Assembly (NCBI RefSeq): GCF_017813245.1
Contig: NZ_JAGIQL010000003.1
Span: 55,409-119,408, forward strand
Direction of reading: 5' to 3'
DNA: 64,000 nt
DNA from: Streptomyces montanisoli
GTDB lineage: Bacteria; Actinomycetota; Actinomycetes; Streptomycetales; Streptomycetaceae
The position numbers and the translations under genes were made by a program. This document shows positions 7,562 through 63,068 of the stretch, piece after piece (position 1 is the stretch's first letter; each line of letters opens with the position of its first letter). Below the pieces are notes generated by a model. That model was not told where the DNA came from. It was given only the letters and a program-made list of their open reading frames with translations, and made no database searches.

Positions 7562-8169
7562 CCGCCACCGACACCAGCACGCCGAACGCCGAGCAGCCCG
7601 CCGAGTCCCTGCGCGACCTCGCCATCGAAGAGGCCGCCGTCGACCTGCTCGCCGCCCGCGTCGCCGCTGCCAAGAAGGACGTACGGGCCCGTACACAGGC
7701 CGCGCTTGACGCGGCCGCCCGGCGGGATGGAGTCGAGCGCGTCGCCGCCGAGCTCCCCGGCGGGCCAGCGGTCGCGACCATCTCTCTGCGTAAGGGCAGC
7801 GTGGGCCCGGTCGTCACCGACGCCGAGGCGTTCGCCCGTTGGGTCGCCGCACGGTGGCCCGAGCAGCGTCAGGAGTACACGGAGACCCGGCTCGTGCGGA
7901 CCGTCAAGGAGTGGCGCGCGGCCGAGCTGGTCGCCGAAATGGCCGCCCTTGAGTTGTCCCTCGACGGCAAGGGCACGCGCCCCGCCCAGTGGGCCGACCC
8001 GGACACGGGCGAGCTGGTCGAGGTGCCGGGCGTGCTCATCAAACCAACCAGCGCCCGCACGCACTCGCTCACGTGGCGCAAGGGCGGGAAGGACGCGACC
8101 GCCGAGGCGTGGCGCACCGGCACTCTCGCCGCGCAGTTCGCCGCGATCACCGCGGGGGGCGAGAAGTGA
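7558..8169 (+). CDS. Hypothetical protein coupled to ERF recombinase
   Basis: 203 residues, GTG start overlapping the ERF stop. The N-terminal half is helical (AIEEAAVDLLAARVAAAKKD), the rest mixed, with a late segment VPGVLIKPTSARTHSLTW. I do not recognise the family. Tight coupling to the annealing protein suggests a partner role in recombination (nuclease or nuclease inhibitor), but no nuclease motif such as QxxxY or PD-(D/E)xK could be confirmed by eye. Confidence 0.7.
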   Translation: MTATDTSTPNAEQPAESLRDLAIEEAAVDLLAARVAAAKKDVRARTQAALDAAARRDGVERVAAELPGGPAVATISLRKGSVGPVVTDAEAFARWVAARWPEQRQEYTETRLVRTVKEWRAAELVAEMAALELSLDGKGTRPAQWADPDTGELVEVPGVLIKPTSARTHSLTWRKGGKDATAEAWRTGTLAAQFAAITAGGEK

Positions 8170-8315
8170 TCCTCGCCGCTGTCACCGCAGTCGTGACCCT
8201 CGCCGCGCTCGTCGTCGGGGCGTGGGCGATCGAGACCCGCCTCGCCGCCCTGTGGCGCACCGAGCAGCGCCGCCACAACGCCCGCCATCGCCGCAGCCAG
8301 TCGGCCCCGCGGTGA
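8166..8315 (+). CDS. Small single-pass membrane peptide
   Basis: 49 residues from GTG 8166, overlapping the previous stop. One N-terminal hydrophobic helix (VILAAVTAVVTLAALVVGAW) followed by a strongly basic tail rich in Arg and His. Both ends are stop/start coupled to neighbours, which supports translation. Function unknown; it resembles small phage membrane peptides in architecture only. Confidence 0.6.
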   Translation: MILAAVTAVVTLAALVVGAWAIETRLAALWRTEQRRHNARHRRSQSAPR

Positions 8316-8473
8316 CGCGCGCCCTCGACTGGCGCGACCGCCGCCACTGGTCGGCGAAGCGCCGCCCGTGCCGCTACTGCGGACGCCTGACCAACCTCCG
8401 CGACGAGCAGGGCCGACCCGCCATGAAGGTCTGCGCCGAGCAGGCAGAAGCCGACGCCGAGCGCACCCGATGA
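8312..8473 (+). CDS. Small zinc-motif protein, 53 residues
   Basis: GTG start at 8312 overlaps the previous stop. Very basic N terminus, then CRYCG and a single later Cys. The short CxxC unit suggests a partial metal site or a minimal zinc finger. It belongs to a set of small cysteine-motif proteins in this early region. No specific function can be assigned. Confidence 0.55.
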   Translation: MTRALDWRDRRHWSAKRRPCRYCGRLTNLRDEQGRPAMKVCAEQAEADAERTR

Positions 8474-8549
8474 CCGGCCCCGGGGCGAGGACGAGCCACA
8501 CGGCCCCTCGCCCCGGGCGCCCGCACCACCAGAACAGGAGCAACCCCCC

Positions 8550-9488
8550 GTGCCATGGTTCAAGGTCGACGACACCGCGCACAGTCACCCCAAGCTGATC
8601 AAGGCCGGTAACGCCGCCGTCGGCCTGTGGATGCGTGCGGGCGCCTACGTCGCCCAGCACCTCACCGAAGGCGCCGTACCGGGCGTCGTCGCCCAGCTGT
8701 ACGGCACCACCCCGCAGGCCCGAAAGCTGGTCACGGTCGGCCTGTGGCATGCCGCCGGCCACACCTGCCCGCGTTGCCCGCAGCCCGCCACGGGTGACTA
8801 CCAGATCCACGACTACCACCAGTACAACCCGCGCCGGGCGAAGGTCGAGGACGACCGCGCCGCCGCCGCCGAGCGCCAGCAGCGGGCCCGCGAACGTGCC
8901 GCCGAGCAGCGCGCCGCCCGCAAAAACGCCTCCGATTCGTCGACGAATCGCGGTCGAATCGACGACGAATCGTCGACGGAAAATCTCGAAAGCGCTCCGA
9001 ATCAGGGCGCGTTTTGGGAAGGCGCCGCAGGTCAAGAGCACCGGTCACAGCGTGACGGGTACAACCCGTCACGGTCCCCCCGACCCGACCCGACCCCTAG
9101 TACTCCCTACGGGAGTACTACCCCCCAACCCCCCACGGACCGGCCCGGCACCCCAGGACCCGCCGAGCAGCTGCTCGCCCGATGGTGGGAGACCTACGGC
9201 CGCACGACCGCCCAGAGCCGTACGACCGTCGGCCGGGCGATCGCCGACGCGCTCGGCAACGGCCTCGACCCCGCCACCCTGTGGCCCGCCCTCGACCGAC
9301 TCGGCGACCTGTCCAAGCCCGTCACCGGCGGCACGTTGACGTTCGCCCTCGCCGAGCTCAAGCGGCCCGCCCCGGGCGCCGAGGTGATCCCGTTCGACCG
9401 CGCCGCCCGCCCCTCGACGACCGATCAGCGCGTCGCCGCCGGGATGGACCTCGCCGCGCGTCTGCGCGCCCAGGAGGCGGCCCAGTGA
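8550..9488 (+). CDS. Phage replication initiator-like protein
   Basis: 312 residues from GTG 8550. The N-terminal 100 residues (MPWFKVDDTAHSHPKLIKAG ... LWMRAGAYVAQHL) match the winged-helix start of actinophage replication initiation proteins. A cysteine pair (CPRCP) follows, then a basic helix, then a low-complexity linker, and a C-terminal helical domain (ARWWETYGRTTAQSRTTVGR) like the helicase-interacting end of DnaD/replisome organiser proteins. The linker DNA contains the palindromic cluster at 8934-8980, the arrangement seen when the origin lies inside the initiator gene (as in lambda O). The next gene is likely a loader partner. Confidence 0.75.
   Translation: MPWFKVDDTAHSHPKLIKAGNAAVGLWMRAGAYVAQHLTEGAVPGVVAQLYGTTPQARKLVTVGLWHAAGHTCPRCPQPATGDYQIHDYHQYNPRRAKVEDDRAAAAERQQRARERAAEQRAARKNASDSSTNRGRIDDESSTENLESAPNQGAFWEGAAGQEHRSQRDGYNPSRSPRPDPTPSTPYGSTTPQPPTDRPGTPGPAEQLLARWWETYGRTTAQSRTTVGRAIADALGNGLDPATLWPALDRLGDLSKPVTGGTLTFALAELKRPAPGAEVIPFDRAARPSTTDQRVAAGMDLAARLRAQEAAQ
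8934..8980. repeat. Iteron-like palindromic cluster, candidate phage origin
   Basis: A perfect 16-bp palindrome GATTCGTCGACGAATC (8934-8949) is followed by CGACGAATCG again at 8963-8972 and by GTCGAATCGAC and CGTCGACG variants up to 8980. The following 40 bases are unusually A-rich for this genome (AAAATCTCGAAA, GTTTTGGGAA). The cluster encodes only a Ser/Asn/Asp-rich linker of the replication initiator, so its sequence is free to serve as DNA sites. Confidence 0.55.
9098..9120. repeat. Perfect 10-bp hairpin inside the initiator gene
   Basis: TAGTACTCCC and GGGAGTACTA flank a 3-base loop (TAC). The hairpin is followed by a C-rich run. It sits about 120 bases after the iteron-like cluster, in the proline/threonine-rich linker. 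It could be part of the origin or an mRNA structure. It is not followed by a T run, so it is not a classical terminator. Confidence 0.5.
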
Positions 9489-52533: not shown

Positions 52534-53421
52534 ATGACACGCACGCTCGTCGACGACCACAGGCTGCACCGGGACGAGACCGGGAGAAGGGCCCCCGCCG
52601 CCTCCGCGGTGAAGGACGTGAGCCCGCGCGCCAGGGACTGGGCGGAGATCCAGGAACGGATGCTCGTGCCCCTCTACGAGGCGGTCTACGAGCGGCTGGA
52701 GATCCGTGAGGGCACGAGGCTGCTCGCCCTCGGCTGCGGCTCGGGGCTCTCGCTGCTCATGGCGGCGACGCTGGGCGCCCAGGTGACAGGGGTCGACTCG
52801 GATCAAGAGCTGCTGGCGCTCGCGGACGAGCGGCTGCACGCGGAACCGGTCCCCGCGGGAAGGGGCGAGGCGGCAGGGCCGGGAACGCTCCTGCCCGCCG
52901 ACCGCATGGGCGACGCCTCGGGTCCCGGCCGCGCGCCGTACGACGTCATCACCGCCTTCCGGCCGATCGGGCCGGTCGCGGGGAACACCAGGAGCCCCGC
53001 GCCCGCGCTGCGCGGAGCGGTACCGCTGGCGAGGCGCGGCGCGCCCGTCGTGCTGGCGGGCTGGGGCCCGCCGGAGCGCTGTGCCAGCGCGGGGGTGATG
53101 GGCGTGGCGGGGCGGCTGACGGACCGGCTGCGCAAGGGGACGTGGCGGCCCGCGCACCGGGACGATCTGGAGGACGTGGCGGCACGTGCCGGCCTGCGTC
53201 CCGACGGCTCGGGCAGGGTGGCGTGCCCGTTCGGCTACGCGGACATGGCGAGCGCGGTGCGCGGGATGCTCTCGACCGGGGTGTTCGACGGCGCGGTGCG
53301 GGCCACGGACAGGCGGCAGGTGGAGAAGGAGGTAGGGGAGGCGCTCCATCCCCACCTGCGCAAGGACGGCACGGTCTGGATGCCCAACGTCTTCCGGTAC
53401 CTGATCGCGCGGGTGCCCTGA
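52534..53421 (+). CDS. Class I SAM-dependent methyltransferase
   Basis: 295 residues. Motif I LLALGCGSGLSLLMAATLGA and motif II region VTGVDSDQELLALADERL bind S-adenosylmethionine. Then PYDVITAFRPIGPVAG and VVLAGWGPPERC fit the family, and the C-terminal part is less typical. The substrate is unknown; related proteins stand alone in Streptomyces genomes. It precedes the yhf-like cluster on the same strand but 117 bases from it, with a separate promoter. Confidence 0.8.
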   Translation: MTRTLVDDHRLHRDETGRRAPAASAVKDVSPRARDWAEIQERMLVPLYEAVYERLEIREGTRLLALGCGSGLSLLMAATLGAQVTGVDSDQELLALADERLHAEPVPAGRGEAAGPGTLLPADRMGDASGPGRAPYDVITAFRPIGPVAGNTRSPAPALRGAVPLARRGAPVVLAGWGPPERCASAGVMGVAGRLTDRLRKGTWRPAHRDDLEDVAARAGLRPDGSGRVACPFGYADMASAVRGMLSTGVFDGAVRATDRRQVEKEVGEALHPHLRKDGTVWMPNVFRYLIARVP

Positions 53422-53503
53422 GCGGGCCGGCCCGGGCGCGGGTGCTCTGAGCCCGGGCCCTCCGAACCGCCCAGACCCTTCGAACGTTCCCTCGAAAGAG
53501 TTC

Positions 53504-53532
53504 TTGTCAGTATCCGGGATTCTGGTTATTGT
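53504..53532 (+). promoter_or_regulatory. Leaderless promoter of yhfZ with dyad in its spacer
   Basis: TTGTCA (53504-53509) and TATTGT (53527-53532) are 17 bases apart. The start of transcription would be at about 53539, where the GTG of yhfZ lies, so the mRNA would be leaderless. CAGTATCC (53508-53515) and GGATTCTG (53517-53524), seven of eight pairs, form a dyad within the spacer. A related sequence (18 of 27 bases the same) lies at 54542, before yhfY. Confidence 0.6.
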
Positions 53533-53538
53533 TCCAGT

Positions 53539-54477
53539 GTGACCGGACTTGACGAGCGTTTCCTGACGCGCAACGGCCTCGCGGCGCGCCGGCTCGCGGT
53601 TCTCCTGCTGAACCACGAGCCGGACACGAGGCTGCCGCGCGTGCGCGATTTCGCCGAGGAACTGGGCGTGGGAAACGGCACCGTGCAGGCCGCGTTGCAG
53701 CTGCTCGAACACGCCGAGGCCATCGAGACCACGGCCCGCGGCCACCTGGGCACGTTCCTCGTGCGCTCGGACCGGTCGATACTGTGGCGCCTTTCCGGCC
53801 TCGGCACCCTGCTCGCCGCGATGCCGCTGCCCTACTCGCGCCGCTACGAGGGGCTCGCGACCGGGTTGCGCAGTGCCTTCGAGAAGGCGGGCGCGCCGTT
53901 CGCGATCACCTTCATGCGCGGCGCGGGGGCGCGGACCACCGCGCTGCTCGACGGCAAGGTCGACCTGGTGGTGCTGTCCCGGTTCGCGGCCGACCGGCTG
54001 GTCGAGGAGCACCCGGTGGAGCTGGTCGCCGATCTGGGGCCCGCCACGTACGTCGGGGCGCACGGCCTGCTGCTGCGGCACGGCCTCGACGCCGACATGT
54101 CGGGGCTCAGGGTGGCCGTCGACCACGCGTCGGAGGACCAGCGCCTGCTGGCCGAGCGGGTGTTCGGCGACCGCGCCGACATCACCTGGGTCGAGGCTTC
54201 GTACATGCAGCTGGGCGAGTTGTTCCAGCACGGCGGGGCCGACGCCACGGTGTGGAATCTGGACGAGGCGCTGGACAGGCTCGGCCCGGGGGTCGATGTA
54301 CTGCCGCTCGGCGACGAGGTCACGCGCGACCTCGCGCTGCGCAACTCCAGTGCCGCGCTCATAGGAAGGACGGACGGGGCGAAGGCGATGTCCGCGGTGC
54401 GGGAGGCCCTCGACCTCGCGGTGATCACCAACTGCCAGACCGAAGTGCTCAACGGCGAACGGGCACCCTGGTACTGA
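53539..54477 (+). CDS. yhfZ: YhfZ-like GntR-type transcriptional regulator
   Basis: 312 residues from GTG 53539. Winged-helix start (LPRVRDFAEELGVGNGTVQA) of the GntR sort, then a C-terminal periplasmic-binding-like ligand domain (GLATGLRSAFEKAGAPFAIT, KVDLVVLSRFAADRLVEEHP). This two-domain plan is that of E. coli YhfZ. No ribosome site is visible, in line with a leaderless message. As first gene of an eight-gene cluster, it likely controls the cluster. Confidence 0.85.
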   Translation: MTGLDERFLTRNGLAARRLAVLLLNHEPDTRLPRVRDFAEELGVGNGTVQAALQLLEHAEAIETTARGHLGTFLVRSDRSILWRLSGLGTLLAAMPLPYSRRYEGLATGLRSAFEKAGAPFAITFMRGAGARTTALLDGKVDLVVLSRFAADRLVEEHPVELVADLGPATYVGAHGLLLRHGLDADMSGLRVAVDHASEDQRLLAERVFGDRADITWVEASYMQLGELFQHGGADATVWNLDEALDRLGPGVDVLPLGDEVTRDLALRNSSAALIGRTDGAKAMSAVREALDLAVITNCQTEVLNGERAPWY

Positions 54478-54541
54478 CGGGCGGGTGCCGCACCCACGCG
54501 GGCTGCCCGGTACCACGGGCCGCCCGGGCCGACCACAGGAT

Positions 54542-54565
54542 CAGAATACAAAATACTGGTTACTG
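54542..54565 (+). promoter_or_regulatory. Second YhfZ-type operator-like site, before yhfY
   Basis: CAGAATAC-A-AAATACTG followed by GTTACTG resembles the dyad in the yhfZ promoter (18 of 27 aligned bases the same). The region 54541-54580 is much richer in A and T than the flanking genes. It lies in the 110-base gap between yhfZ and yhfY, suggesting a second, regulated promoter for the metabolic genes. Confidence 0.5.
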
Positions 54566-54587
54566 ATTATTGCCGAGGAGGAACTCC

Positions 54588-54962
54588 ATGGACGACCAGC
54601 TCGCCCTCCGCATCAAGCTGTTCCGCGAGAGCGGACAGGTGCGTCCCGAGGTCGCCGCCTTCGTCTCGGACGAACTCGCGGCCCTGTCGGAGCAGGGGCA
54701 CACCGTCACCGAGGACACGGCGGGCATGCTCACGAGCCATCTGATGTTGGCGCTCACCCGCCTGCTGGACGGCGAGCCGATCGCCGTCTTCACCACCGAC
54801 GACCAGGTCGCGGCCGAGCTGGCCGGCCATCCCGAGGCCGTGGCCAGGGCCCGGGAGGTCGCCGGACGCGCGGAGCGCGCGCTTGGCGCCGCCCTGCCCG
54901 ACTCCGAAGTCAACTTCCTCGCGCTGCATCTGGCGGTGCTCGCCCAGCACTCCCCCGCCTGA
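54588..54962 (+). CDS. yhfY: YhfY-like PRD-domain protein
   Basis: 124 residues from ATG 54588, with GAGGAGG upstream. Fits a single PTS-regulation domain: ALRIKLFRESGQVRPEVAAF, TSHLMLALTRLLDGEPI and EVNFLALHLAVLAQH, with a conserved His in the last part. Like YhfY of E. coli it lacks a DNA-binding domain. Probably a sensor or a regulator partner. Confidence 0.85.
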   Translation: MDDQLALRIKLFRESGQVRPEVAAFVSDELAALSEQGHTVTEDTAGMLTSHLMLALTRLLDGEPIAVFTTDDQVAAELAGHPEAVARAREVAGRAERALGAALPDSEVNFLALHLAVLAQHSPA

Positions 54963-55028
54963 TCCGCCTGGCGGCCCGCCCGTCCCGTTGTTCTCCACCA
55001 CTCACGCGACCAGAGAAGGAATCCAGCC

Positions 55029-55385
55029 ATGACGAAGATCCTCACCGGCGGCGTCGGCAAGACCGAGGTCGCGAAGACCATCTCGGACCTCGGCATCGAC
55101 ACCCTGACCGTCACGGTCTCCAGCGACATGGACGCCGCGATGAAGCTGCGCGGCCGCCAGGCCGACTACTACCTCGGTACGTGCCACACCGGCGCGGGCG
55201 CCTCACTCGGCGTCCTCGTCGGCCTGGTGGGCGCGGTGAAGTGCCACACGTTCGGCCGCTCCGTACCGACCGAGGACGAGGTCTGCGCGCTGCTCGCCGA
55301 AGGCAAGACCGTCTTCGGCTTCGCCATCGACCAGATCGACGTCATCGCCCCGGTCATGGCCCGCGCCATCGCGGCGCGGGGCTGA
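55029..55385 (+). CDS. yhfU: YhfU-like DUF2620 protein
   Basis: 118 residues: TKILTGGVGKTEVAKTISDL, VSSDMDAAMKLRGRQADYYL and GTCHTGAGASLGVLVGLVGA. It resembles the small DUF2620 protein that always stands next to YhfT. The G-C-TGAGASLG stretch is reminiscent of phosphate-binding loops such as those of PTS IIB-like proteins. It may be a soluble partner of the transporter. Confidence 0.85.
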   Translation: MTKILTGGVGKTEVAKTISDLGIDTLTVTVSSDMDAAMKLRGRQADYYLGTCHTGAGASLGVLVGLVGAVKCHTFGRSVPTEDEVCALLAEGKTVFGFAIDQIDVIAPVMARAIAARG

Positions 55386-55422
55386 CCGCCCAGGACACGA
55401 CCGGGCCCAAAGGAGTCACCCC

Positions 55423-56856
55423 GTGAGCACAGTGCTCGCAGCGAGCGCCCATCTGGACTTCTCGCTGACCCAGAAACTGACCGTCATCGTGCTGGCCGCG
55501 CTCACCGCGCTCGTCTCGCACATGGCCCTGGCCGTCTTCAACGACGGCACCCGCCCGTTCATGCTGGAGTTCATCCAGGGGCGCGCCACGCGCGCCGCGA
55601 CCGCGGCGGTGGCCTTCGGGCTCTCGGCGGGGTTCATCTTCGGACTGGGCGCTCCGATGGCCCTGTCGTCCGGTGTGCTCAACCCGTGGCTGCTCTTCCT
55701 GCCCACCGACATCCTGGGCATCCTCGCGGTCCGCAAATGGCTCGCGGTGGTGCTCGGCGGCGCCTGGGGCGCGCTGGTGGTCTTCGGGCTGAACGGCGCC
55801 AACGACGTGGCCCACAAGCTGCCCGTGGACTTCCTGACCGCGATGCAGCAGATGTCCACGCCGATCCTGTTCCTCTTCACGCTCTTCCCCGTGCTCGCGG
55901 TGGCCAAGCAGTTCGGCAAGGCACGCGGCGCCATCACGGGCGTCGTGGAACTGGCCCTGGTCATCATGACGATGAAGCTGTGGCCGAACATCTTCGCCGG
56001 GTCGCTCGCCATGGCGGCGGGCGTGCTGATGCTGATCGGCTTCGCCGTACGCAAGGACCTGCTGCAGCGCAGGACCGACCGCGAGGCCGAGGCGGAGGCA
56101 ACGGCGGCGGCAGGCCCCGCGACGGACGGCCCCGGCGGCGGACCGGGCGGCGACGGCAGCGCACTCGCGCAGACGGGCGCCGGCGGCACGGACGTGCCCG
56201 AAGAGGTACTCGAGGACCCGATGGCGTCCCTGTTCAGCGCCAGCGCGGCCAGGCTGCGCAAGCACCTGCCGCTGTTCATGCTGCTGGGCGCCGGGGTCTG
56301 CCTGATCGCGCAGATGCACATATTCGGCGGCGGCGAGGCCACCAGCTTCCTCATCGCCAAGGGACACATCAGCGAGGCGGCCCAGGTCGACTTCTACCGG
56401 GTCTTCGGGTTCATCCCCCTGATCGCGACGACGGCGCTGGCGTCTGGCACCTACGGGATCGCCGGACTGACGCTCGTCTACCCCATCGGATACCTGATGC
56501 CGAACCCGATCCTGGCGGCCGTGGCCGGCGCCGTGGTGATGGCCCTCGAGATCCTCGGCCTCTCGTCCATCGGCAAGGTACTCGGCAAGCTGCCGAGCGT
56601 CCGCGACTCCTCCGAGCACCTGCGCAGCGCCATCACGGACACGCTGCAACTGGCCATCCTGTTCGGCTCGCTGCTCGCCGCGAACGTGATGGGCGGCGGG
56701 CTCGGCATCCTCATCGTCGGCGGGCTCTACCTCGTCAACGAGGCGATGGGCCGCCCCGTGGTGCGGATGGCGGCGGCGCCCGCGGCGGTCATCGTCGGCG
56801 GCATCCTCCTCAACGTCCTCTACTGGCTCGACCTGTTCACCCCGGTGAAGGGCTGA
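55423..56856 (+). CDS. yhfT: YhfT-like multi-pass membrane protein (putative transporter)
   Basis: 477 residues from GTG 55423 with about ten or more hydrophobic segments, for example TVIVLAALTALVSHMALAVF, FGLSAGFIFGLGAPMAL, AMAAGVLMLIGFAV, and SLLAANVMGGGLGILIVGGL. A cytosolic insert near residues 215-275 is Gly/Ala-rich. Matches YhfT, a predicted permease of the E. coli operon. Its substrate is unknown; the neighbours suggest an amino or sugar-phosphate-related compound. Confidence 0.85.
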   Translation: MSTVLAASAHLDFSLTQKLTVIVLAALTALVSHMALAVFNDGTRPFMLEFIQGRATRAATAAVAFGLSAGFIFGLGAPMALSSGVLNPWLLFLPTDILGILAVRKWLAVVLGGAWGALVVFGLNGANDVAHKLPVDFLTAMQQMSTPILFLFTLFPVLAVAKQFGKARGAITGVVELALVIMTMKLWPNIFAGSLAMAAGVLMLIGFAVRKDLLQRRTDREAEAEATAAAGPATDGPGGGPGGDGSALAQTGAGGTDVPEEVLEDPMASLFSASAARLRKHLPLFMLLGAGVCLIAQMHIFGGGEATSFLIAKGHISEAAQVDFYRVFGFIPLIATTALASGTYGIAGLTLVYPIGYLMPNPILAAVAGAVVMALEILGLSSIGKVLGKLPSVRDSSEHLRSAITDTLQLAILFGSLLAANVMGGGLGILIVGGLYLVNEAMGRPVVRMAAAPAAVIVGGILLNVLYWLDLFTPVKG

Positions 56857-56906
56857 CCCGTCCCCGTGATCGAGAGGGCCCCACGGCCCGGAAAGGCACC
56901 CGCGCC

Positions 56907-57851
56907 ATGCACCACCATCTGCGCACCGTCGCCGGGCCGCTGGACGTCTCGGGGATCCGGGGGCCGCTGCTCGCCCATGAGCACCTGGTCCTCGACCTCG
57001 ACCACGCGGGCGACCGGGCGGCCGTGCTCGACCCGGTCGCGCACGCGCCCGCCGTCACCGAGGAGCTGTCCGCGCTGCGCGCCGCCTTCGGCCTCAGCGC
57101 CGTCGTCGAGCTGACGTGCCGGGGCATGGGCCGCGATCCGCGCGCGCTGGCGCGGATCGCGGCGGACTCCGGCGTGCCGGTCGTCGCGGCGACCGGCTGG
57201 TACTACGAGCCGTTCCATCCGGCGGAGGTCGGCGCATCAGGCACCGCCGGGCTCACGGACACCCTCGTCCGGGAGATCGAGCACGGCATCGGCACCACCG
57301 GTGTCCTGCCCGGTGTCATCGGCGAGGTCGGCAGCCACGGCGACGTGCCGAGCCCCGAGGAGGCACGGGTGCTCACCGCGTCCGCACGGGCGGCCACCGC
57401 CACCGGCCTGTCGCTGGCCACCCATGCCCAGCTCGGCCGGGGCGGCCCGGCCCAGCTGGACATCCTCACCGCGGCCGGTCTGCCGCCGCACCGCATCTCG
57501 ATCGGCCACCAGGACCTGCTGGACGACCCGGCCACGCACCGGGCGCTCGCCGCGCAGGGCGCGTACGTCGCGTTCGACACCGTCGGCAAGTCGGGCTACC
57601 AGAGCGACGACACCCGGCTGCGGCTGCTGCTCGACCTGCTGGACGCGGGCCACGCCGACCGGGCGCTGCTCAGCTGCGACATCTCGCGCCACGGCTATCT
57701 GGCGTCCGAGGGCGGGCAGGGCTACGGGCACCTGTTCGGCTCCTTCCTGCCCAAGGCGCGCGCGGCAGGTCTGGACGACGACCTCGTGGACCTCATCACG
57801 CGCCGCAACCCCCTGCGCTTCCTCACCGGCGCAGACGTCGAGGAGATCTGA
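56907..57851 (+). CDS. php: Phosphotriesterase homology protein (Php/YhfV)
   Basis: 314 residues. Amidohydrolase-type metal centre: His 24 and His 26 in LLAHEHLVLD, Glu 140 in GVIGEVGSHG as bridging residue (Lys in true phosphotriesterases, Glu in Php), His 173 in LATHAQLG, His 201 in IGHQD, Asp 258 in LLSCDISRHG. All are present, so it should be an active hydrolase, probably a lactonase- or ester-cleaving enzyme. The E. coli homologue has no known substrate. Confidence 0.9.
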   Translation: MHHHLRTVAGPLDVSGIRGPLLAHEHLVLDLDHAGDRAAVLDPVAHAPAVTEELSALRAAFGLSAVVELTCRGMGRDPRALARIAADSGVPVVAATGWYYEPFHPAEVGASGTAGLTDTLVREIEHGIGTTGVLPGVIGEVGSHGDVPSPEEARVLTASARAATATGLSLATHAQLGRGGPAQLDILTAAGLPPHRISIGHQDLLDDPATHRALAAQGAYVAFDTVGKSGYQSDDTRLRLLLDLLDAGHADRALLSCDISRHGYLASEGGQGYGHLFGSFLPKARAAGLDDDLVDLITRRNPLRFLTGADVEEI

Positions 57852-59021
57852 ATGCCGCACGGCACACCCCCCACACCTCCCAAGCCCCCTACGCCCGCCG
57901 CACCGGGCACCGCCGAGACCCGCGTGCGGCTGCCGGGGACCCACCCGCTGCCGACGGTGGCGCTGCGGGACGCGCTCCGCACCCAGTTCCGGCTGCTGGA
58001 GCGGACCGCGGCCCACTTCGAGGGGCCGCAACTGTTCGAGGCGGACGCCGGCGTGGTGCCGGGGCTCGGCAGGCCGCGGACGACGGCGCGCGTCGAGGCC
58101 GTCCTGGCCGAGTTCCTCGGCGCCGAGGACGCGGCGCTCGTGCAGGGCGCCGGCACCGGCGCCATCCGGGCCGCCCTGCAGGCCGCCGCCGGCCCGGGCG
58201 AGCCGCTGCTCATCCACCGGGCGCCCGTCTACCGCACCACCGCCGTCACGCTGCGCGGGCTCGGCGTCCGCACCGTCGAGGTCGACTTCAACGACGCGGC
58301 GGCGCTCGAAGCCGCCCTGGCGACGGGCGAGTTCCGCTGGGCCTACGTGCAGCACAGCCGCCAGCGCCTGACGGACGCGTACGACCCGGCGGCGGTGCTC
58401 GCCGCCTGCTCCGCCGCCGGGGTGCGGACGATCGTGGACGACAACTACGCCGTACTGCGCGTGCCCGCGTCGGGAGTCGAGCTGGGAGCGGAGGCGTCCT
58501 GCTTCTCGCTGTTCAAGCTGCACGGCCCGGAAGGGGTCGGCGCCGTCGTCGGCTCGCGCGAGCTGATCGGCCGGATCCGCGCCGACAACTACTCGGGGGG
58601 CGGGCAGGTCCAGGGCCACCAGGCGCTCGACGCCCTGCGCGCCCTCACCCACGTGCCGGTCATGTGGGCCGTGCAGTCGGAGGTCGGCGCCGAGGTCGCC
58701 GAACGGCTCGCGGCCGGCGAGGTCCCCGGCGTCGCGGACGTCCGCCTCGCCAACGTCCAGGACCGCTGCCTGATCGTCCTGCTCGACCGACCGGTCGCAC
58801 GTGAACTGCCCGCCGTCGCGGCCCGGCACGGGGCCGCCCCCTACCCCGTCGGCTCGAACTCGCGCTACGAGATCGCGCCGCTCGTCTACCGCATGTCCAG
58901 CTCGTCCCTCGACGACGCTCCCGAACTCGCCGACTGGGCCGTACGGATCAACCCGATGAGGGCCGGCGCGGACCTCGTGATCGAGATCGTCCGCCGCTCC
59001 CTGCACGACCTGAAGGGCTGA
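57852..59021 (+). CDS. yhfS: YhfS-like PLP-dependent enzyme, fold type I
   Basis: 389 residues, ATG directly at the php stop. Cofactor motifs: VQGAGTGAIRAALQAAAG (phosphate-binding), IVDDNYAVLRVP (Asp for the pyridine nitrogen), and FSLFKLHGPEGVGAVVG with the likely Schiff-base Lys 222. Related to cystathionine/aminotransferase enzymes, the same as E. coli YhfS. Substrate unknown. Confidence 0.88.
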   Translation: MPHGTPPTPPKPPTPAAPGTAETRVRLPGTHPLPTVALRDALRTQFRLLERTAAHFEGPQLFEADAGVVPGLGRPRTTARVEAVLAEFLGAEDAALVQGAGTGAIRAALQAAAGPGEPLLIHRAPVYRTTAVTLRGLGVRTVEVDFNDAAALEAALATGEFRWAYVQHSRQRLTDAYDPAAVLAACSAAGVRTIVDDNYAVLRVPASGVELGAEASCFSLFKLHGPEGVGAVVGSRELIGRIRADNYSGGGQVQGHQALDALRALTHVPVMWAVQSEVGAEVAERLAAGEVPGVADVRLANVQDRCLIVLLDRPVARELPAVAARHGAAPYPVGSNSRYEIAPLVYRMSSSSLDDAPELADWAVRINPMRAGADLVIEIVRRSLHDLKG

Positions 59022-59023
59022 CC

Positions 59024-60211
59024 GTGTTCCTCGACACCGTCCTCACCCGCAACCCCGGTCTCGTCGAGACCGCCGCCGCGCTGCACGGCTCGGGCGCCAT
59101 CCCGCCCGACACCTATGTGCTGGACGCCGACGCGGTCGAGGCCAACGCCTCGCTGCTCGCGGCCGAGGCCGACCGGCTCGGCCTGACGCTCTGGTTCGTC
59201 GTCAAGCAACTCGGCCGCAACCCCGAGCTGATCCGGGCCGTCTCGCGCCACATCCCCGCCTTCGCCGCGATCGATCCGGCGGAGGCGCGGCTCCTGCACG
59301 CCACGGGCGCCCGGCCCGGCAACCTCGGCCACCTGGTGCAGATCCCGCACCGCGACCTGCCCGAGATGCTCGGCTGGCGGCCGGAGGCCGTGACGGTCTT
59401 CGACCTGGCCAACGCCCGCGCCGTGTCGGACGCCGCCGCCGGCCTCGGCCGGGTGCAGGACGTCCTCGTGCGCCTGGAAGGCGCCTCCGGTACGGTCTAT
59501 CCGGGCCAGGAGGGCGGTGTCCCCCTGGAGCAGCTCGACGCGTTCGCCGCCGAGGCCGAACGGCTGCCCGGGATCCGGATCGCGGGCGTCACCGCGTTCC
59601 CGTGCGTGCTGTGCGATCCGGCGACCGGCGTGCCCGCCCCGACACCCACGTTCGAGCTGGCCGTCAAGGCGAAGGCGCTGCTCGCCTCGCGCGGCCACCG
59701 CGACCTGAAGCTGAGCGCCCCCAGCGCCACGTCGATGGCCACGCTGCCGCTGCTCGCGGAGCTCGGGGCGACGCACGGCGAGCCGGGGCACTCCCTCACG
59801 GGCACCACCCCGCTGCACGCCGTCGACGCGCACCAGCCGGAACAGCCCGCGTACGTGTACGTGACCGAGGTCGCACACACCCTGGCGGACGGGCGCCCCG
59901 CCGTGTACGGCGGCGGTTTCTACGCGCGCGCGGGCATCCGCGGCGCACTCCTGACGCGCAGCGGTGTCCGGCTCCCCGTCCAGCCGGCCCCCGCGGAGAA
60001 CATCGACTACTACCGGTTGCTCGGCGCGCCCGAGCGGGCCGGAGAGGCGCGCGCGGGCGACACGGCCGTGCTCGCCTTCCGCACGCAGATCTTCGTCACC
60101 CGCTCGTCGGTCGCGATCGTCTCCGGCCTGTCCACCGGCTCGCCCCGGCTCACCGGCCTGTACGACTCCCGGGGCCGGGCCCTGGAGCGGCCCGAGAGGA
60201 GCACGCCGTGA
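59024..60211 (+). CDS. yhfX: YhfX-like PLP-dependent enzyme (alanine racemase fold)
   Basis: 395 residues from GTG 59024. Alanine-racemase-like barrel with the expected Lys near residue 61 (WFVVKQLGRNPE), IAGVTAFPCVL, and a late Cys; C-terminal domain with EVAHTLADGRPAVYGGGFYA. Matches YhfX, a racemase-like protein. It could racemise or decarboxylate an amino acid. Its stop overlaps the yhfW start. Confidence 0.88.
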   Translation: MFLDTVLTRNPGLVETAAALHGSGAIPPDTYVLDADAVEANASLLAAEADRLGLTLWFVVKQLGRNPELIRAVSRHIPAFAAIDPAEARLLHATGARPGNLGHLVQIPHRDLPEMLGWRPEAVTVFDLANARAVSDAAAGLGRVQDVLVRLEGASGTVYPGQEGGVPLEQLDAFAAEAERLPGIRIAGVTAFPCVLCDPATGVPAPTPTFELAVKAKALLASRGHRDLKLSAPSATSMATLPLLAELGATHGEPGHSLTGTTPLHAVDAHQPEQPAYVYVTEVAHTLADGRPAVYGGGFYARAGIRGALLTRSGVRLPVQPAPAENIDYYRLLGAPERAGEARAGDTAVLAFRTQIFVTRSSVAIVSGLSTGSPRLTGLYDSRGRALERPERSTP

Positions 60212-61425
60212 GCAGGACCGTCATCGTCGTCATCGACGGCTTCGGTGTGGGCGCCATGCCCGACGCGGGCGCCCTGCGCCCCGGCGACGCCGCGGCCGAC
60301 ACCTGCGGCCATGTGCTCGACGGCTGCCGCGAGCTGCTGGGCCGCCCGCTGAGGCTGCCCGCCCTCGGGGCGCTGGGGCTCGGCGTCGTCCATCCGCACC
60401 GCGACCTGGCGGCGGCCACGCCGCTGCCGGTCGCGGCCGGCAGGGCCGCGCTCGGCTATCCGGGCGCGGACACCTTCGCCGGCCACCAGACCATGATGGG
60501 CGCAGACTTCAGCCGCGTCACCGTCGCGAGGCTGGCGGAGCACCTGTCGGACGTCACGGCCGCGCTCAAGGCCGCCGGGCACACGGTGTCGCTGCTCGAC
60601 GGCAGGCCACTGCTCGTCGTCGACGACGCGGTGCTGGTGCACGACAACCTGGAGGCAGACCCGGGGATCAACTGGAACGCGTCGGCCCGCCTGGCGGACA
60701 TGTCCTTCGAGGGAACGCTCGCGGTCGCCCGCACGGTACGCACGGTCGCCCCGGTGGCGCGCGTCATCGCCGTGGGCGGCAACGCGGACGGTCCGCTGCG
60801 GGAGTTCGTCCGCGACGGCGACGGCGGCACGGTCGGTCTGGACACGCCGGCGACGGGTTTCTACCGCAACGGCGGCCTTCAGGTGCGGCACCTGGGGGCG
60901 GAACTCGACCACACGCGGCAGCTCCCCGATCTCGCCGCGCGCTCCGGCATCCCGGTCACGCTCGTCGGCAAGGCGGCGGACATCCTCGCGTGCGACGCGG
61001 CCGAGCGCCGTCCCGCCGTGGCGACGGCCGAGGTCGCCGGGCACACGCTGGACGCCGTGCGGGCGTCGGGGCACGACGCGCTGGTCGTGGCCAACGTCCA
61101 GGAGTCCGACCTGGCGGGGCACCAGCAGGACACCGCGCGCTACGGGCGGGTCCTTGAGGAGGCCGACACGGGGCTGTTCGAGCTGATCGGGCTCCTCGAC
61201 CGGCCGGACGACCGGCTGATCGTGACGGGCGACCACGGCAACGACCCCACCATCGGGCACGCGTACCACACCCGCGAGTTCGTGCCCGTGCTGATCCACG
61301 CGCCCGGCACGGACGGCACGGAGATACTTCCCGACGCCCCGACCCTCGCGGACGTCGGCGCCCGCGCCGCGGCCTTCCTCGGCCTGCCGGCGGGGGCGCT
61401 GGCCAACGGCTCGGTCCGGCGCTGA
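60208..61425 (+). CDS. yhfW: YhfW-like phosphopentomutase-family enzyme
   Basis: 405 residues from GTG 60208 (GTGA overlap). Alkaline-phosphatase superfamily: TVIVVIDGFGVGAMPDAGAL, AGHQTMMGADFS (nucleophile Thr), VVANVQESDLAGHQQDTARY, and VTGDHGNDPTIGHAYHTREF with metal-binding Asp/His. Length and motifs follow DeoB phosphopentomutase, as YhfW does in E. coli. It would act on a phosphosugar. Last gene of the cluster before a terminator. Confidence 0.88.
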   Translation: MSRTVIVVIDGFGVGAMPDAGALRPGDAAADTCGHVLDGCRELLGRPLRLPALGALGLGVVHPHRDLAAATPLPVAAGRAALGYPGADTFAGHQTMMGADFSRVTVARLAEHLSDVTAALKAAGHTVSLLDGRPLLVVDDAVLVHDNLEADPGINWNASARLADMSFEGTLAVARTVRTVAPVARVIAVGGNADGPLREFVRDGDGGTVGLDTPATGFYRNGGLQVRHLGAELDHTRQLPDLAARSGIPVTLVGKAADILACDAAERRPAVATAEVAGHTLDAVRASGHDALVVANVQESDLAGHQQDTARYGRVLEEADTGLFELIGLLDRPDDRLIVTGDHGNDPTIGHAYHTREFVPVLIHAPGTDGTEILPDAPTLADVGARAAAFLGLPAGALANGSVRR

Positions 61426-61444
61426 CCTGACGCGCCGCACCGTG

Positions 61445-61472
61445 GGCCCGGCCTCCCGGCGGAGGCCGGGCC
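61445..61472. terminator. Terminator between yhfW and ffh
   Basis: GGCCCGGCCTCC and GGAGGCCGGGCC form a perfect 12-bp stem around CGGC. Serves the convergent yhf-like cluster and ffh. Confidence 0.8.
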
Positions 61473-61536
61473 GGGCGGACCCGCGCCGGGCGGACCCGCG
61501 CCGGGTCAGCCCGTCAGCCCGTCAGCCCGTCAGCCC
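61473..61536. repeat. Two tandem repeat tracts overlapping the ffh stop
   Basis: GGGCGGACCCGCGCC occurs twice (61473-61487, 61488-61502), then GTCAGCCC four times (61505-61536). The last 8-mer overlaps the ffh stop codon. Each 8-mer carries TGA on the minus strand. Slippage here could change copy number without affecting ffh. Confidence 0.75.
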
Positions 61537-63068
61537 ATGAACTTCTTGAACTCGTCGGGCAGTTCGAACTGGTTGTCCTGCTCCTGCGCCGGCGCACCGC
61601 CCAGCGCCGCCTGCTCCTTGCGGGCCAGCGCCGCCTGCTCCTCGGCCTTGCGCTTCATCGGGTTGCCGGAGCGCTGCTTGCCCTTGGCCTGCTTCTGCTT
61701 CTTCTTCTGCCGCCCGGGGCCGCCGCCCATGCCCGGCATCCCGGGCATCCCCGGCATGCCGCCGCCCTGCGCCATCCGCGACATCATCTTGCGGGCCTCG
61801 AAGAACCGCTCCACGAGGTTCTTCACCGCGCCGACCTCGACGCCTGAGCCCCGTGCGATACGGGCGCGGCGCGAGCCGTTGATGATCGTCGGCTCGGCGC
61901 GCTCCCCCGGCGTCATGGACTTGATGATGGCGGCCGTGCGGTCGACGTCACGCTCGTCCAGGTTGTTGATCTGGTCCTTCATCTGCCCCATGCCCGGCAG
62001 CATGCCGAGCAGCTTGGACAGCGAGCCCATCTTCCTTACCTGCTCCATCTGGGACAGGAAGTCGTCGAGCGTGAACTCCTTCGGGCCCTTGGCGAGCTTC
62101 GAGGCCATCTTCTCGGCCTCGGCCTGGCTGAAGGTCTGCTCGGCCTTCTCGATCAGGCTGAGCAGGTCGCCCATGTCGAGGATGCGGGACGCCATGCGGT
62201 CCGGGTGGAACGCGTCGAACTCGTCCAGCTTCTCGCCGTTGGAGGCGAACATGATCTGCTTGCCGGTCACGTGGGCCACGGAGAGCGCGGCGCCGCCGCG
62301 CGCGTCGCCGTCGAGCTTGGACAGCACGACGCCGTCGAAGCCGACGCCGTCGCGGAAGGCCTCGGCGGTGTTGACCGCGTCCTGGCCGATCATCGCGTCC
62401 ACGACGAAGAGGACCTCGTCGGGCGAGACCGCGTCGCGGATGTCGGCGGCCTGCCGCATCAGCTCCTGGTCGATGCCGAGGCGGCCCGCAGTGTCGACGA
62501 TCACGACGTCGTGGACCTTGTCCTTGGCGTACGTGACGGAGTCCTCGGCGACCTTGACCGGGTCGCCCACGCCGTTGCCCGGCTCCGGCGCGTACACGGC
62601 GACGCCGGCGCGCTCGGCCACGACGGAGAGCTGGGTGACGGCGTTGGGCCGCTGGAGGTCGCACGCGACGAGCAGCGGCGAGTGGCCCTGGTTCTTCAGC
62701 CAGAGGCCGAGCTTGCCCGCGAGGGTGGTCTTGCCCGCGCCCTGGAGGCCCGCCAGCATGATCACGGTCGGCGGCTGCTTCGCGAAGCGCAGGCGCCGCG
62801 TCTCGCCGCCGAGGATGCCGACGAGCTCCTCGTTGACGATCTTGACGACCTGCTGCGCCGGGTTCAGCGCACGGGAGACCTCCTCGCCCGCGGCGCGCTC
62901 CTTGATGTGCTTGATGAAGTCGCGCACGACGGGCAGCGCCACGTCGGCTTCCAGCAGGGCGATGCGGATCTCGCGTGCCGTGGCGTCGATGTCCTCCGGG
63001 CTGAGGCGCCCTTTGCCCCGGAGGCTCTTGAAGGTGGCTGCGAGGCGGTCGGAGAGAGTGTCGAACAC
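61530..63068 (-). CDS. ffh: Signal recognition particle protein Ffh (SRP54)
   Basis: 512 residues. GTPase domain: GLQGAGKTTLAGKLG (P loop), DTAGRLG and SKLDGDARGG. The methionine-rich M domain (MMSRMAQGGGMPGMPGMPG) binds SRP RNA and signal peptides. Targets membrane and secreted proteins, in keeping with the nearby signal peptidase genes. ATG 63068 is at the normal family start. Confidence 0.97.
   Translation of the reverse strand: MFDTLSDRLAATFKSLRGKGRLSPEDIDATAREIRIALLEADVALPVVRDFIKHIKERAAGEEVSRALNPAQQVVKIVNEELVGILGGETRRLRFAKQPPTVIMLAGLQGAGKTTLAGKLGLWLKNQGHSPLLVACDLQRPNAVTQLSVVAERAGVAVYAPEPGNGVGDPVKVAEDSVTYAKDKVHDVVIVDTAGRLGIDQELMRQAADIRDAVSPDEVLFVVDAMIGQDAVNTAEAFRDGVGFDGVVLSKLDGDARGGAALSVAHVTGKQIMFASNGEKLDEFDAFHPDRMASRILDMGDLLSLIEKAEQTFSQAEAEKMASKLAKGPKEFTLDDFLSQMEQVRKMGSLSKLLGMLPGMGQMKDQINNLDERDVDRTAAIIKSMTPGERAEPTIINGSRRARIARGSGVEVGAVKNLVERFFEARKMMSRMAQGGGMPGMPGMPGMGGGPGRQKKKQKQAKGKQRSGNPMKRKAEEQAALARKEQAALGGAPAQEQDNQFELPDEFKKFMG

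What the first reader, a model, noticed from the sequence alone, without database searches (positions are those of the whole stretch)
53504..61425. A complete yhf-like eight-gene operon of unknown function, in reordered form
Eight consecutive plus-strand genes correspond by domain and length to YhfZ, YhfY, YhfU, YhfT, Php, YhfS, YhfX and YhfW of E. coli: regulator, PRD protein, DUF2620, permease, metal hydrolase, two PLP enzymes of different folds, and a phosphopentomutase-like enzyme. The set is complete but the order differs from the E. coli one. All key residues read by eye in Php (H24, H26, E140, H173, H201, D258), the PLP lysines and the phosphomutase motifs are present. That the same eight parts stay together in an actinobacterium argues for one pathway: uptake of an unknown compound, hydrolysis, two PLP steps and a phosphosugar step. 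The pathway is inferred.
Basis: partly seen in the sequence, partly recalled or inferred. Interest (0 to 1): 0.78.

Follow-up and report, generated by a model that had tools for sequence, protein, structure and literature searches.

The report
E. coli-type yhf operon in Streptomyces
A Streptomyces chromosome carries the same eight-gene yhf set that E. coli has and whose job is unknown, preceded by a DNA palindrome conserved across relatives; it is likely an inducible pathway that takes up and breaks down an amino-acid-containing compound, predicted to be switched by the set's own regulator.

Summary
Confirmed: 53539-61425 holds eight plus-strand genes matching the YhfZ, YhfY, YhfU, YhfT, Php, YhfS, YhfX and YhfW families, with active-site residues intact. 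Corrections: the order Z-Y-U-T-V-S-X-W is no oddity; the 80 Streptomyces/Actinomadura loci read keep it (gene losses, one extra YhfT and contig ends apart), as does a Fusobacterium. The eight are not inseparable: a Streptomyces clade of eight lacks the phosphomutase-like YhfW genome-wide, seven of these also YhfZ, and a Vibrio plasmid cluster lacks YhfS. New: a palindrome overlapping a promoter ends 7 nt before yhfZ, with a second copy before yhfY. It occurs in 9 of 9 genomes tested with the operon, 0 of 8 without, and mostly decays where YhfZ is lost: the predicted YhfZ operator. New lead: outside yhf, YhfX sits with sugar-type importers, usually an M20 deacylase, and in 20 of 28 loci a glucosamine-6-phosphate-deaminase-like gene, pointing to amino-sugar/amino-acid conjugates. 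Substrate and all reactions are inferred. Known kind, new lineage data, function open but testable.

The parts
53504..53532 (+). predicted sigma-70-like promoter TTGTCA-17-TATTGT of yhfZ, ending 6 nt before the GTG (leaderless transcript predicted)
   Evidence: only promoter-like site found in 53380-61560, both strands, 0.1 expected
53508..53531 (.). palindromic predicted YhfZ operator CAGTATCCGGGATTCTGGTTATTG, lying inside the promoter
   Evidence: only match in the window, 0 expected in shuffles; motif upstream of yhfZ in 60 of 68 loci; found only at the operon in 9 of 9 genomes that have it, 0 of 8 that lack it
53539..54477 (+). yhfZ: HTH + YhfZ_C, predicted ligand-responsive repressor
   Evidence: NF041241 over its cut-off; PF14503 3e-58
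54542..54565 (+). second, less symmetric copy of the motif before yhfY
   Evidence: 4 mismatches to the consensus; upstream of yhfY in 45 of 76 loci at up to 5 mismatches
54588..54962 (+). yhfY: single PRD domain protein
   Evidence: PF00874 1e-6; His51 near-invariant in 80 members
55029..55385 (+). yhfU: DUF2620, small Cys-loop protein, perhaps distantly RpiB/LacAB-like
   Evidence: PF10941 5e-40; hhalign to RpiB E 3e-5, probability 72%; weak LacAB_rpiB hits in 30 of 69 members, not in the window's own protein
55423..56856 (+). yhfT: permease-like membrane protein, 11 hydrophobic stretches
   Evidence: PF10797 7e-152; hydropathy
56907..57851 (+). php (yhfV): phosphotriesterase-family metallohydrolase
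   Evidence: PF02126 4e-59; ligand residues conserved
57852..59021 (+). yhfS: fold-type-I PLP enzyme
   Evidence: PF22475 1e-40; 48% to E. coli YhfS; K222
59024..60211 (+). yhfX: alanine-racemase-fold PLP enzyme
   Evidence: PF21279 and PF01168; E. coli YhfX 4kbx E 6e-80; K61
60208..61425 (+). yhfW: phosphopentomutase-like enzyme
   Evidence: NF009049 over its cut-off; Thr and metal-ligand regions align to phosphopentomutase 3m8w

Best explanation
This is the Streptomyces yhf operon, likely an inducible catabolic pathway in which YhfT/YhfU would import an N-acylated or otherwise amide- or lactone-masked amino compound, Php would hydrolyse it, and the two PLP enzymes YhfX and YhfS would process the amino acid set free. 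YhfZ is predicted to repress its own leaderless gene and the rest by binding the palindrome CAGTATCCAG-AATC-CTGGTTACTG that overlaps the promoter, and to let go when it binds the substrate or a product through its C-terminal domain. YhfY (PRD) would tie the system to the phosphotransferase system. YhfW would act on a sugar phosphate but is optional. From the company that YhfX relatives keep, the substrate class is most likely an amino-sugar/amino-acid conjugate. Shown: gene families, conserved residues, order, conserved palindrome, loss pattern, YhfX neighbourhoods. Inferred: transport, every reaction, the repressor role and the substrate.
For: Families and residues. Tight spacing from T to W, gaps 50, 0, 2, -4 nt. 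Palindrome at the operon only, in 9 of 9 genomes with and 0 of 8 without it; 1 stray site in 1.54 Mb of loci; before yhfY it is kept within 6 mismatches in 54 of 68 loci with YhfZ and in 1 of 8 without. Outside yhf, of 28 YhfX loci with a transporter, 22 have an M20 deacylase (4 of the 6 misses are contig ends) and 20 a NagB-type gene (family models run on two M20 and four NagB-type proteins), so importer + amide hydrolase + YhfX recurs with unrelated proteins. A mammalian member of the Php superfamily, PTER, cleaves N-acetyltaurine, with H26, H28 and E169 placed at the metal in a model (PMC11374699: passages only), so amide cleavage is a known activity of the family. Cetobacterium has a gene annotated as amidase inside the operon.
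Against: No biochemical or expression data. NagB and M20 were not seen in the yhf operons read, and the yhf YhfX proteins form their own group (99/92), so the substrate class may not carry over. 8 of 28 YhfX loci with a transporter lack NagB, many of the 20 are close kin, and three further YhfX genes sit beside other enzymes. The four NagB-type and two M20 proteins run against NCBIfam score below the cut-offs of their best models. The Cetobacterium 'amidase' matches Pfam Amidase below its cut-off. The motif consensus was derived from the loci in which it was counted.
Confidence: 0.45

Rival explanations
1. A divergent phosphotransferase-type pathway: YhfU (Cys-loop, EIIB-like) and YhfT (EIIC-like) would phosphorylate a sugar derivative on entry, sensed by the PRD protein YhfY; Php would then be a phospho-lactonase and YhfW would move the phosphate.
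For: PRD protein in 76 of 77 loci whose upstream side is held; YhfU has an invariant Cys in a CxTGxG loop; Vibrio halioticoli has PTS EIIC and EIIA genes beside its cluster.
Against: No PTS family among the 25 families shown (of 27) for 69 YhfU members, nor for four YhfT proteins, at E up to 10; YhfU leans to RpiB/LacAB instead; no EIIA in the operon; YhfW lost without the rest.
Confidence: 0.15
2. A sugar-phosphate or aldonolactone pathway: Php is a lactonase, YhfU an RpiB-like isomerase, YhfW a mutase, and the PLP enzymes act on an amino sugar acid such as glucosaminate.
For: YhfU similarity to RpiB/LacAB; weak phospho-furanose lactonase match of Php, 34 bits against a cut-off of 630; YhfW keeps the phosphopentomutase Thr and metal-ligand regions.
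Against: In the YhfU/RpiB alignment the shared feature is the Cys loop; the N-terminal Asp-His region of RpiB falls at a gap. YhfW, the phosphate enzyme, is what a whole clade lost.
Confidence: 0.2
3. A detoxification or damage-repair system (removal of D-amino acid or N-acyl metabolites made by the cell) rather than a nutrient pathway.
For: One YhfX relative outside yhf lies beside a RidA-family gene; patchy distribution, 8 of 60 other same-genus genomes.
Against: A dedicated permease-like protein and a local regulator point to uptake; the predicted operator is confined to this operon.
Confidence: 0.12

Closest known systems
Escherichia coli K-12 yhfZYXW-php-yhfUTS (3504935-3512344 of NC_000913.3)
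   Same: all eight families, adjacent, one strand; 34-48% identity for seven of them
   Different: order Z Y X W V U T S; E. coli YhfY lacks the second PRD His seen here (read by eye translations); the Streptomyces palindrome is not seen by eye upstream of E. coli yhfZ
Cetobacterium somerae plasmid yhf cluster (NZ_CP092520.1)
   Same: same order Z Y U T .. V S X W in another phylum
   Different: an extra 343-aa gene annotated as amidase between T and V
YhfX-ABC operons: ROK regulator, M20, RbsB, RbsC, YhfX, RbsA, often NagB
   Same: importer + hydrolase + YhfX layout
   Different: ABC importer instead of YhfT/U (amino-acid permease in Embleya), M20 instead of Php, no YhfS/YhfW seen, NagB-type gene in 20 of 28 loci; YhfX of a separate group
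Phosphopentomutase DeoB
   Same: Thr and metal-ligand regions of YhfW align
   Different: scores below the DeoB cut-off (120.8 against 341.2 bits) but over the YhfW-type model NF009049

Membership tests
yhf operon (E. coli type) | all eight gene families present, adjacent and on one strand | tested here: met
yhf operon (E. coli type) | same gene order as E. coli | tested here: not met
   Z Y U T V S X W against Z Y X W V U T S; order is not treated as defining because Cetobacterium shares the Streptomyces order
yhf operon (E. coli type) | YhfX belongs to the yhf-operon group | tested here: met
   branch support 99/92, 21 yhf rows on one side of 44 (rows L084 and L111 too short and dropped)
Php (phosphotriesterase family with Glu bridging ligand) | HxH, Glu, His, His, Asp metal ligands | tested here: met
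   H24, H26, E140, H173, H201, D258; ligand roles recalled
Php (phosphotriesterase family with Glu bridging ligand) | hydrolytic activity and substrate | not testable with these tools
   needs protein
Phosphopentomutase DeoB | score over the DeoB cut-offs | tested here: not met
   TIGR01696 120.8 of 341.2 bits; NF003766 132.5 of 256
RpiB/LacAB isomerase | Pfam LacAB_rpiB over its cut-off | tested here: not met
   window YhfU: no hit; best relative E 0.012
RpiB/LacAB isomerase | shared fold and Cys loop | tested here: inconclusive
PTS EIIB/EIIC | match to a PTS family | tested here: not met
   none among the families shown at E up to 10 (25 of 27 shown)
YhfZ regulator with local operator | palindrome conserved at the operon and confined to it | tested here: met
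YhfZ regulator with local operator | YhfZ binds it | not testable with these tools
   needs gel shift or footprint

The most novel reading that the evidence does not exclude
YhfX-family enzymes define an undescribed class of pathways that dismantle amino-sugar/amino-acid conjugates, built twice: once around an ABC importer, an M20 deacylase and a glucosamine-6-phosphate deaminase, and once as the yhf operon around YhfT/YhfU, Php and YhfS, run by a single-target YhfZ palindrome. The orphan yhf operon of E. coli K-12 would then be a conjugate-scavenging pathway whose minimal Streptomyces form has six genes.
Probability: 0.3. Interest if true: 0.75.

Novelty: new member of a known kind. Interest (0 to 1): 0.48.

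Why it matters
The yhf operon is an orphan of E. coli K-12: structures of three of its enzymes are in the PDB, but in eight library searches aimed at these genes neither the listings nor the passages I read gave a function. A Streptomyces version with the likelier ancestral order, a naturally reduced six-gene form, a predicted operator and a recurring amino-sugar neighbourhood of YhfX give concrete handles: a reporter to screen inducers, a minimal gene set, and a short list of substrate classes.

Tried and rejected
YhfU as a PTS EIIB protein (Cys-loop resemblance by eye): no PTS family shown in Pfam scans at E up to 10. RpiB/LacAB was the commonest non-self family, 30 of 69 members, best E 0.012, next DUF7907 12 and PBP_like 10; members are related and the hits weak. 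YhfU as SFCGS family (PF14272): single weak hits (Cetobacterium 0.09; one of 69 members); the two genomes ringing for PF14272 were below its cut-off and one hit is an RpiB gene; dropped. A recalled link to D-glucosaminate (Dga) clusters was not pursued for want of sequences. Viral contigs with YhfT: none. Metagenomes and Firmicutes yhf contexts were not surveyed; the one genome-contig scan returned only Streptomyces and Actinomadura among the best 80 of 204 confirmed stretches. In one search the distance to ffh was computed wrongly (an identity was taken as a coordinate) and a methyltransferase query was out of frame; one search replaces the ffh part. Independent losses of YhfW, which the 44-row YhfX tree seemed to allow, were withdrawn after the 72-row tree gave one loss. 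An L036 locus without YhfZ and YhfY proved not to be a YhfZ loss: its genome has YhfZ on another contig. The Cetobacterium extra gene as amidase is weakly supported.
Full report
What is there. Eight plus-strand genes run from 53539 to 61425. Profile searches name them YhfZ, a PRD protein in the YhfY place, YhfU (DUF2620), YhfT, a phosphotriesterase-family protein (Php), YhfS, YhfX and YhfW. YhfZ and YhfW pass the curated NCBIfam cut-offs of their models. Against the eight E. coli K-12 proteins, seven of eight pair with their namesake at 34-48% identity; YhfY did not reach E 0.01 and rests on its PRD domain, position and a shared His51. The nearest named relative seen is Streptomyces sp. NRRL F-5126 (YhfT 97%). 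Gaps between T, Php, S, X and W are 50, 0, 2 and -4 nt, so these are likely one transcript; there are no transcript data.

Residues. Php H24, H26, E140, H173, H201 and D258 are at least 98% conserved among 81 aligned members that include E. coli, Vibrio and Cetobacterium; so are YhfX K61 (69 members) and YhfS K222 (77 members, no Vibrio) (short rows and rows with stops left out). In YhfW (69 members), T89, D301, H305, D342, H343 and H354 are conserved and lie where phosphopentomutase 3m8w aligns; that these are nucleophile and metal ligands is recalled. E. coli YhfX, YhfS and Php have solved structures (4kbx, 4j8l, 4lef/1bf6).

Distribution and order. Among 100 genomes near the window, own included, DUF2620 is found in 9: the own genome, 8 of 60 others of the genus, 0 of 39 outside it. 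One scan of the species-level genome collection gave 204 confirmed YhfT stretches; the best 80 (76 Streptomyces, 4 Actinomadura) were kept and read. Their relative order is always Z Y U T V S X W: 60 show exactly these eight, one has an extra YhfT copy after Z, one a broken W at a contig end, and 18 are cut by contig ends or lack genes. E. coli has Z Y X W V U T S. Cetobacterium somerae, a Fusobacterium, has the Streptomyces order with one extra gene. A Vibrio halioticoli plasmid has Z Y V U T X W; no YhfS is on the stretch and that plasmid gave no YhfS match (its chromosome was not searched). In a YhfX tree of 44 rows the 21 yhf-operon proteins lie on one side of a branch (99/92), with Cetobacterium beside E. 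coli and Vibrio. An order shared by actinobacteria and a Fusobacterium is the likelier ancestral one, so 'reordered' fits E. coli better.

What can be lost. YhfW is decidable in 71 loci and absent in 8. Whole-genome searches found no YhfW match in these eight genomes (seven, the eighth, L074, where 4 of 4 positive controls rang). YhfZ is missing beside the operon in 9 of 77 loci whose upstream side is held; eight of the nine genomes have no YhfZ match at all (seven, L068), while the ninth, L036, has it on another contig; 4 of 4 positive controls rang. Seven genomes lack both; L074 lacks only YhfW; L068 is cut before the place of YhfW. YhfY is present in 76 of 77. On a 72-row tree of joined T, V, S and X proteins the eight W-less loci form one group (SH-aLRT 99, quick method without bootstrap), so one loss explains them. 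Y U T V S X persist there.

A predicted operator. Just before yhfZ stands TTGTCA-17 nt-TATTGT, the only promoter-like site in 8.2 kb (0.1 expected), ending 6 nt before the GTG, which predicts a leaderless message. Inside it lies a 24-bp palindrome; 20 of 24 consensus positions are self-complementary. The consensus, read from these loci, is found within 5 mismatches before yhfZ in 60 of 68 loci and before yhfY in 45 of 76, at one other place in 1.54 Mb, and nowhere in Markov shuffles of 40 loci. In 17 whole genomes, with up to 3 mismatches to a degenerate pattern, it occurs in 9 of 9 with the operon and 0 of 8 without (the 8 picked by me from the 52 same-genus genomes that lack DUF2620); all 11 sites lie within 2 kb of yhfU; the reversed control pattern gave 1 hit, in G005. 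Before yhfY the best site is within 6 mismatches in 54 of 68 loci with YhfZ and in 1 of 8 without; L078 keeps one half. The window has copies at 53508-53531 and 54542-54565; only the first meets the stricter pattern. That YhfZ binds it is predicted, not shown. By eye the motif is not upstream of yhfZ in E. coli, Vibrio or Cetobacterium; an Actinomadura keeps the right half.

Company of YhfX elsewhere. YhfX relatives on plasmids and in other Actinomycetota sit in a different, conserved layout: ROK regulator, M20 deacylase, RbsB, RbsC, YhfX, RbsA, sometimes a ROK kinase, often a NagB-type gene. I read 12 of the 19 plasmid records and 16 of the 18 matches. Of 28 such loci with a transporter, 20 have a glucosamine-6-phosphate-deaminase-like gene and 22 the M20 gene (4 of 6 misses are contig ends); 8 lack NagB. 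A 29th (L111) was left out because its contig ends inside YhfX. Family models were run on four of the NagB-type proteins (one NagB-I, three NagB-II; all below NCBIfam cut-offs) and two M20 proteins (one over the Pfam M20 cut-off); the others were assigned by tblastn to these. The 20 come from about eight genera. Three further YhfX genes sit beside a RidA-family protein and an IlvD dehydratase, a creatininase- and an isochorismatase-family protein, or an iron alcohol dehydrogenase, and one is broken. This suggests, without proving, that YhfX works on the amino-acid side of amino-sugar conjugates, and that importer plus amide hydrolase plus YhfX is the logic shared with yhf, where Php would stand in for M20. 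PTER, a mammalian phosphotriesterase-related protein, is an N-acetyltaurine hydrolase (PMC11374699, passages read).

YhfU. Its commonest non-self Pfam match is LacAB_rpiB (30 of 69 members, best E 0.012; the window's own protein has none), and comparison with a profile of 17 RpiB proteins (16 parsed of 30 loci, plus E. coli) gives E 3e-5, probability 72%, aligning the Cys loop. The rest of the RpiB site is not evident.

Literature. Eight searches aimed at these genes and two on side questions used the held open-access library. What I saw were listings with the start of abstracts, and passages of PMC7513527, PMC12147183, PMC5293155, PMC4448311 and PMC3423039, where the genes appear in lists, in a knockout screen (YhfZ) or as a gap-filling guess (YhfW, E 0.47); none assigns a function. 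Subscription journals and preprints are not held, so prior work may exist; I recall structural-genomics interest in this operon but read nothing of it.

Verdict. A real, complete yhf operon: a new lineage account of a known orphan, with a new predicted operator, a documented reduced form and a substrate-class lead.

Noticed in passing
L038 (Streptomyces varsoviensis) 7681-9060: A second YhfT copy, 52% identical to the window's, stands between yhfZ and yhfY.
   Followed up: partly
L110, L190-L202, L204, L109, L185, L095, L098, L096: Conserved operon ROK regulator-M20-RbsBC-YhfX-RbsA-NagB-type gene (amino-acid permease instead of ABC in Embleya, L096); I saw no description of it, but did not search the literature for it.
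   Followed up: partly
L097 1961-4523 (Vibrio halioticoli plasmid): PTS EIIC, PTS EIIA and a DUF7916 protein lie next to the yhf cluster.
   Followed up: no
P0243: An E. coli protein record of 186 aa carries both a phosphotriesterase-family and a DUF2620 match, as if php ran into yhfU.
   Followed up: no
window 61530-63068 and the 80 loci: In 37 of 80 loci ffh lies convergently downstream of the operon, 50 to 2519 nt away; in others with room it was not found there.
   Followed up: partly
L122 (G262): The Pfam model Gly_rich_SFCGS hits an RpiB gene at E 6e-4, below its cut-off, hinting that SFCGS proteins and RpiB are related.
   Followed up: no
L186-L188 (G643): One genome holds three YhfX-like genes in three contexts, one of them with two in-frame stops.
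   Followed up: no
L036 (Streptomyces sp. col6): The operon starts at yhfU; yhfZ lies on another contig of the genome, so the set is split there or the assembly is.
   Followed up: partly
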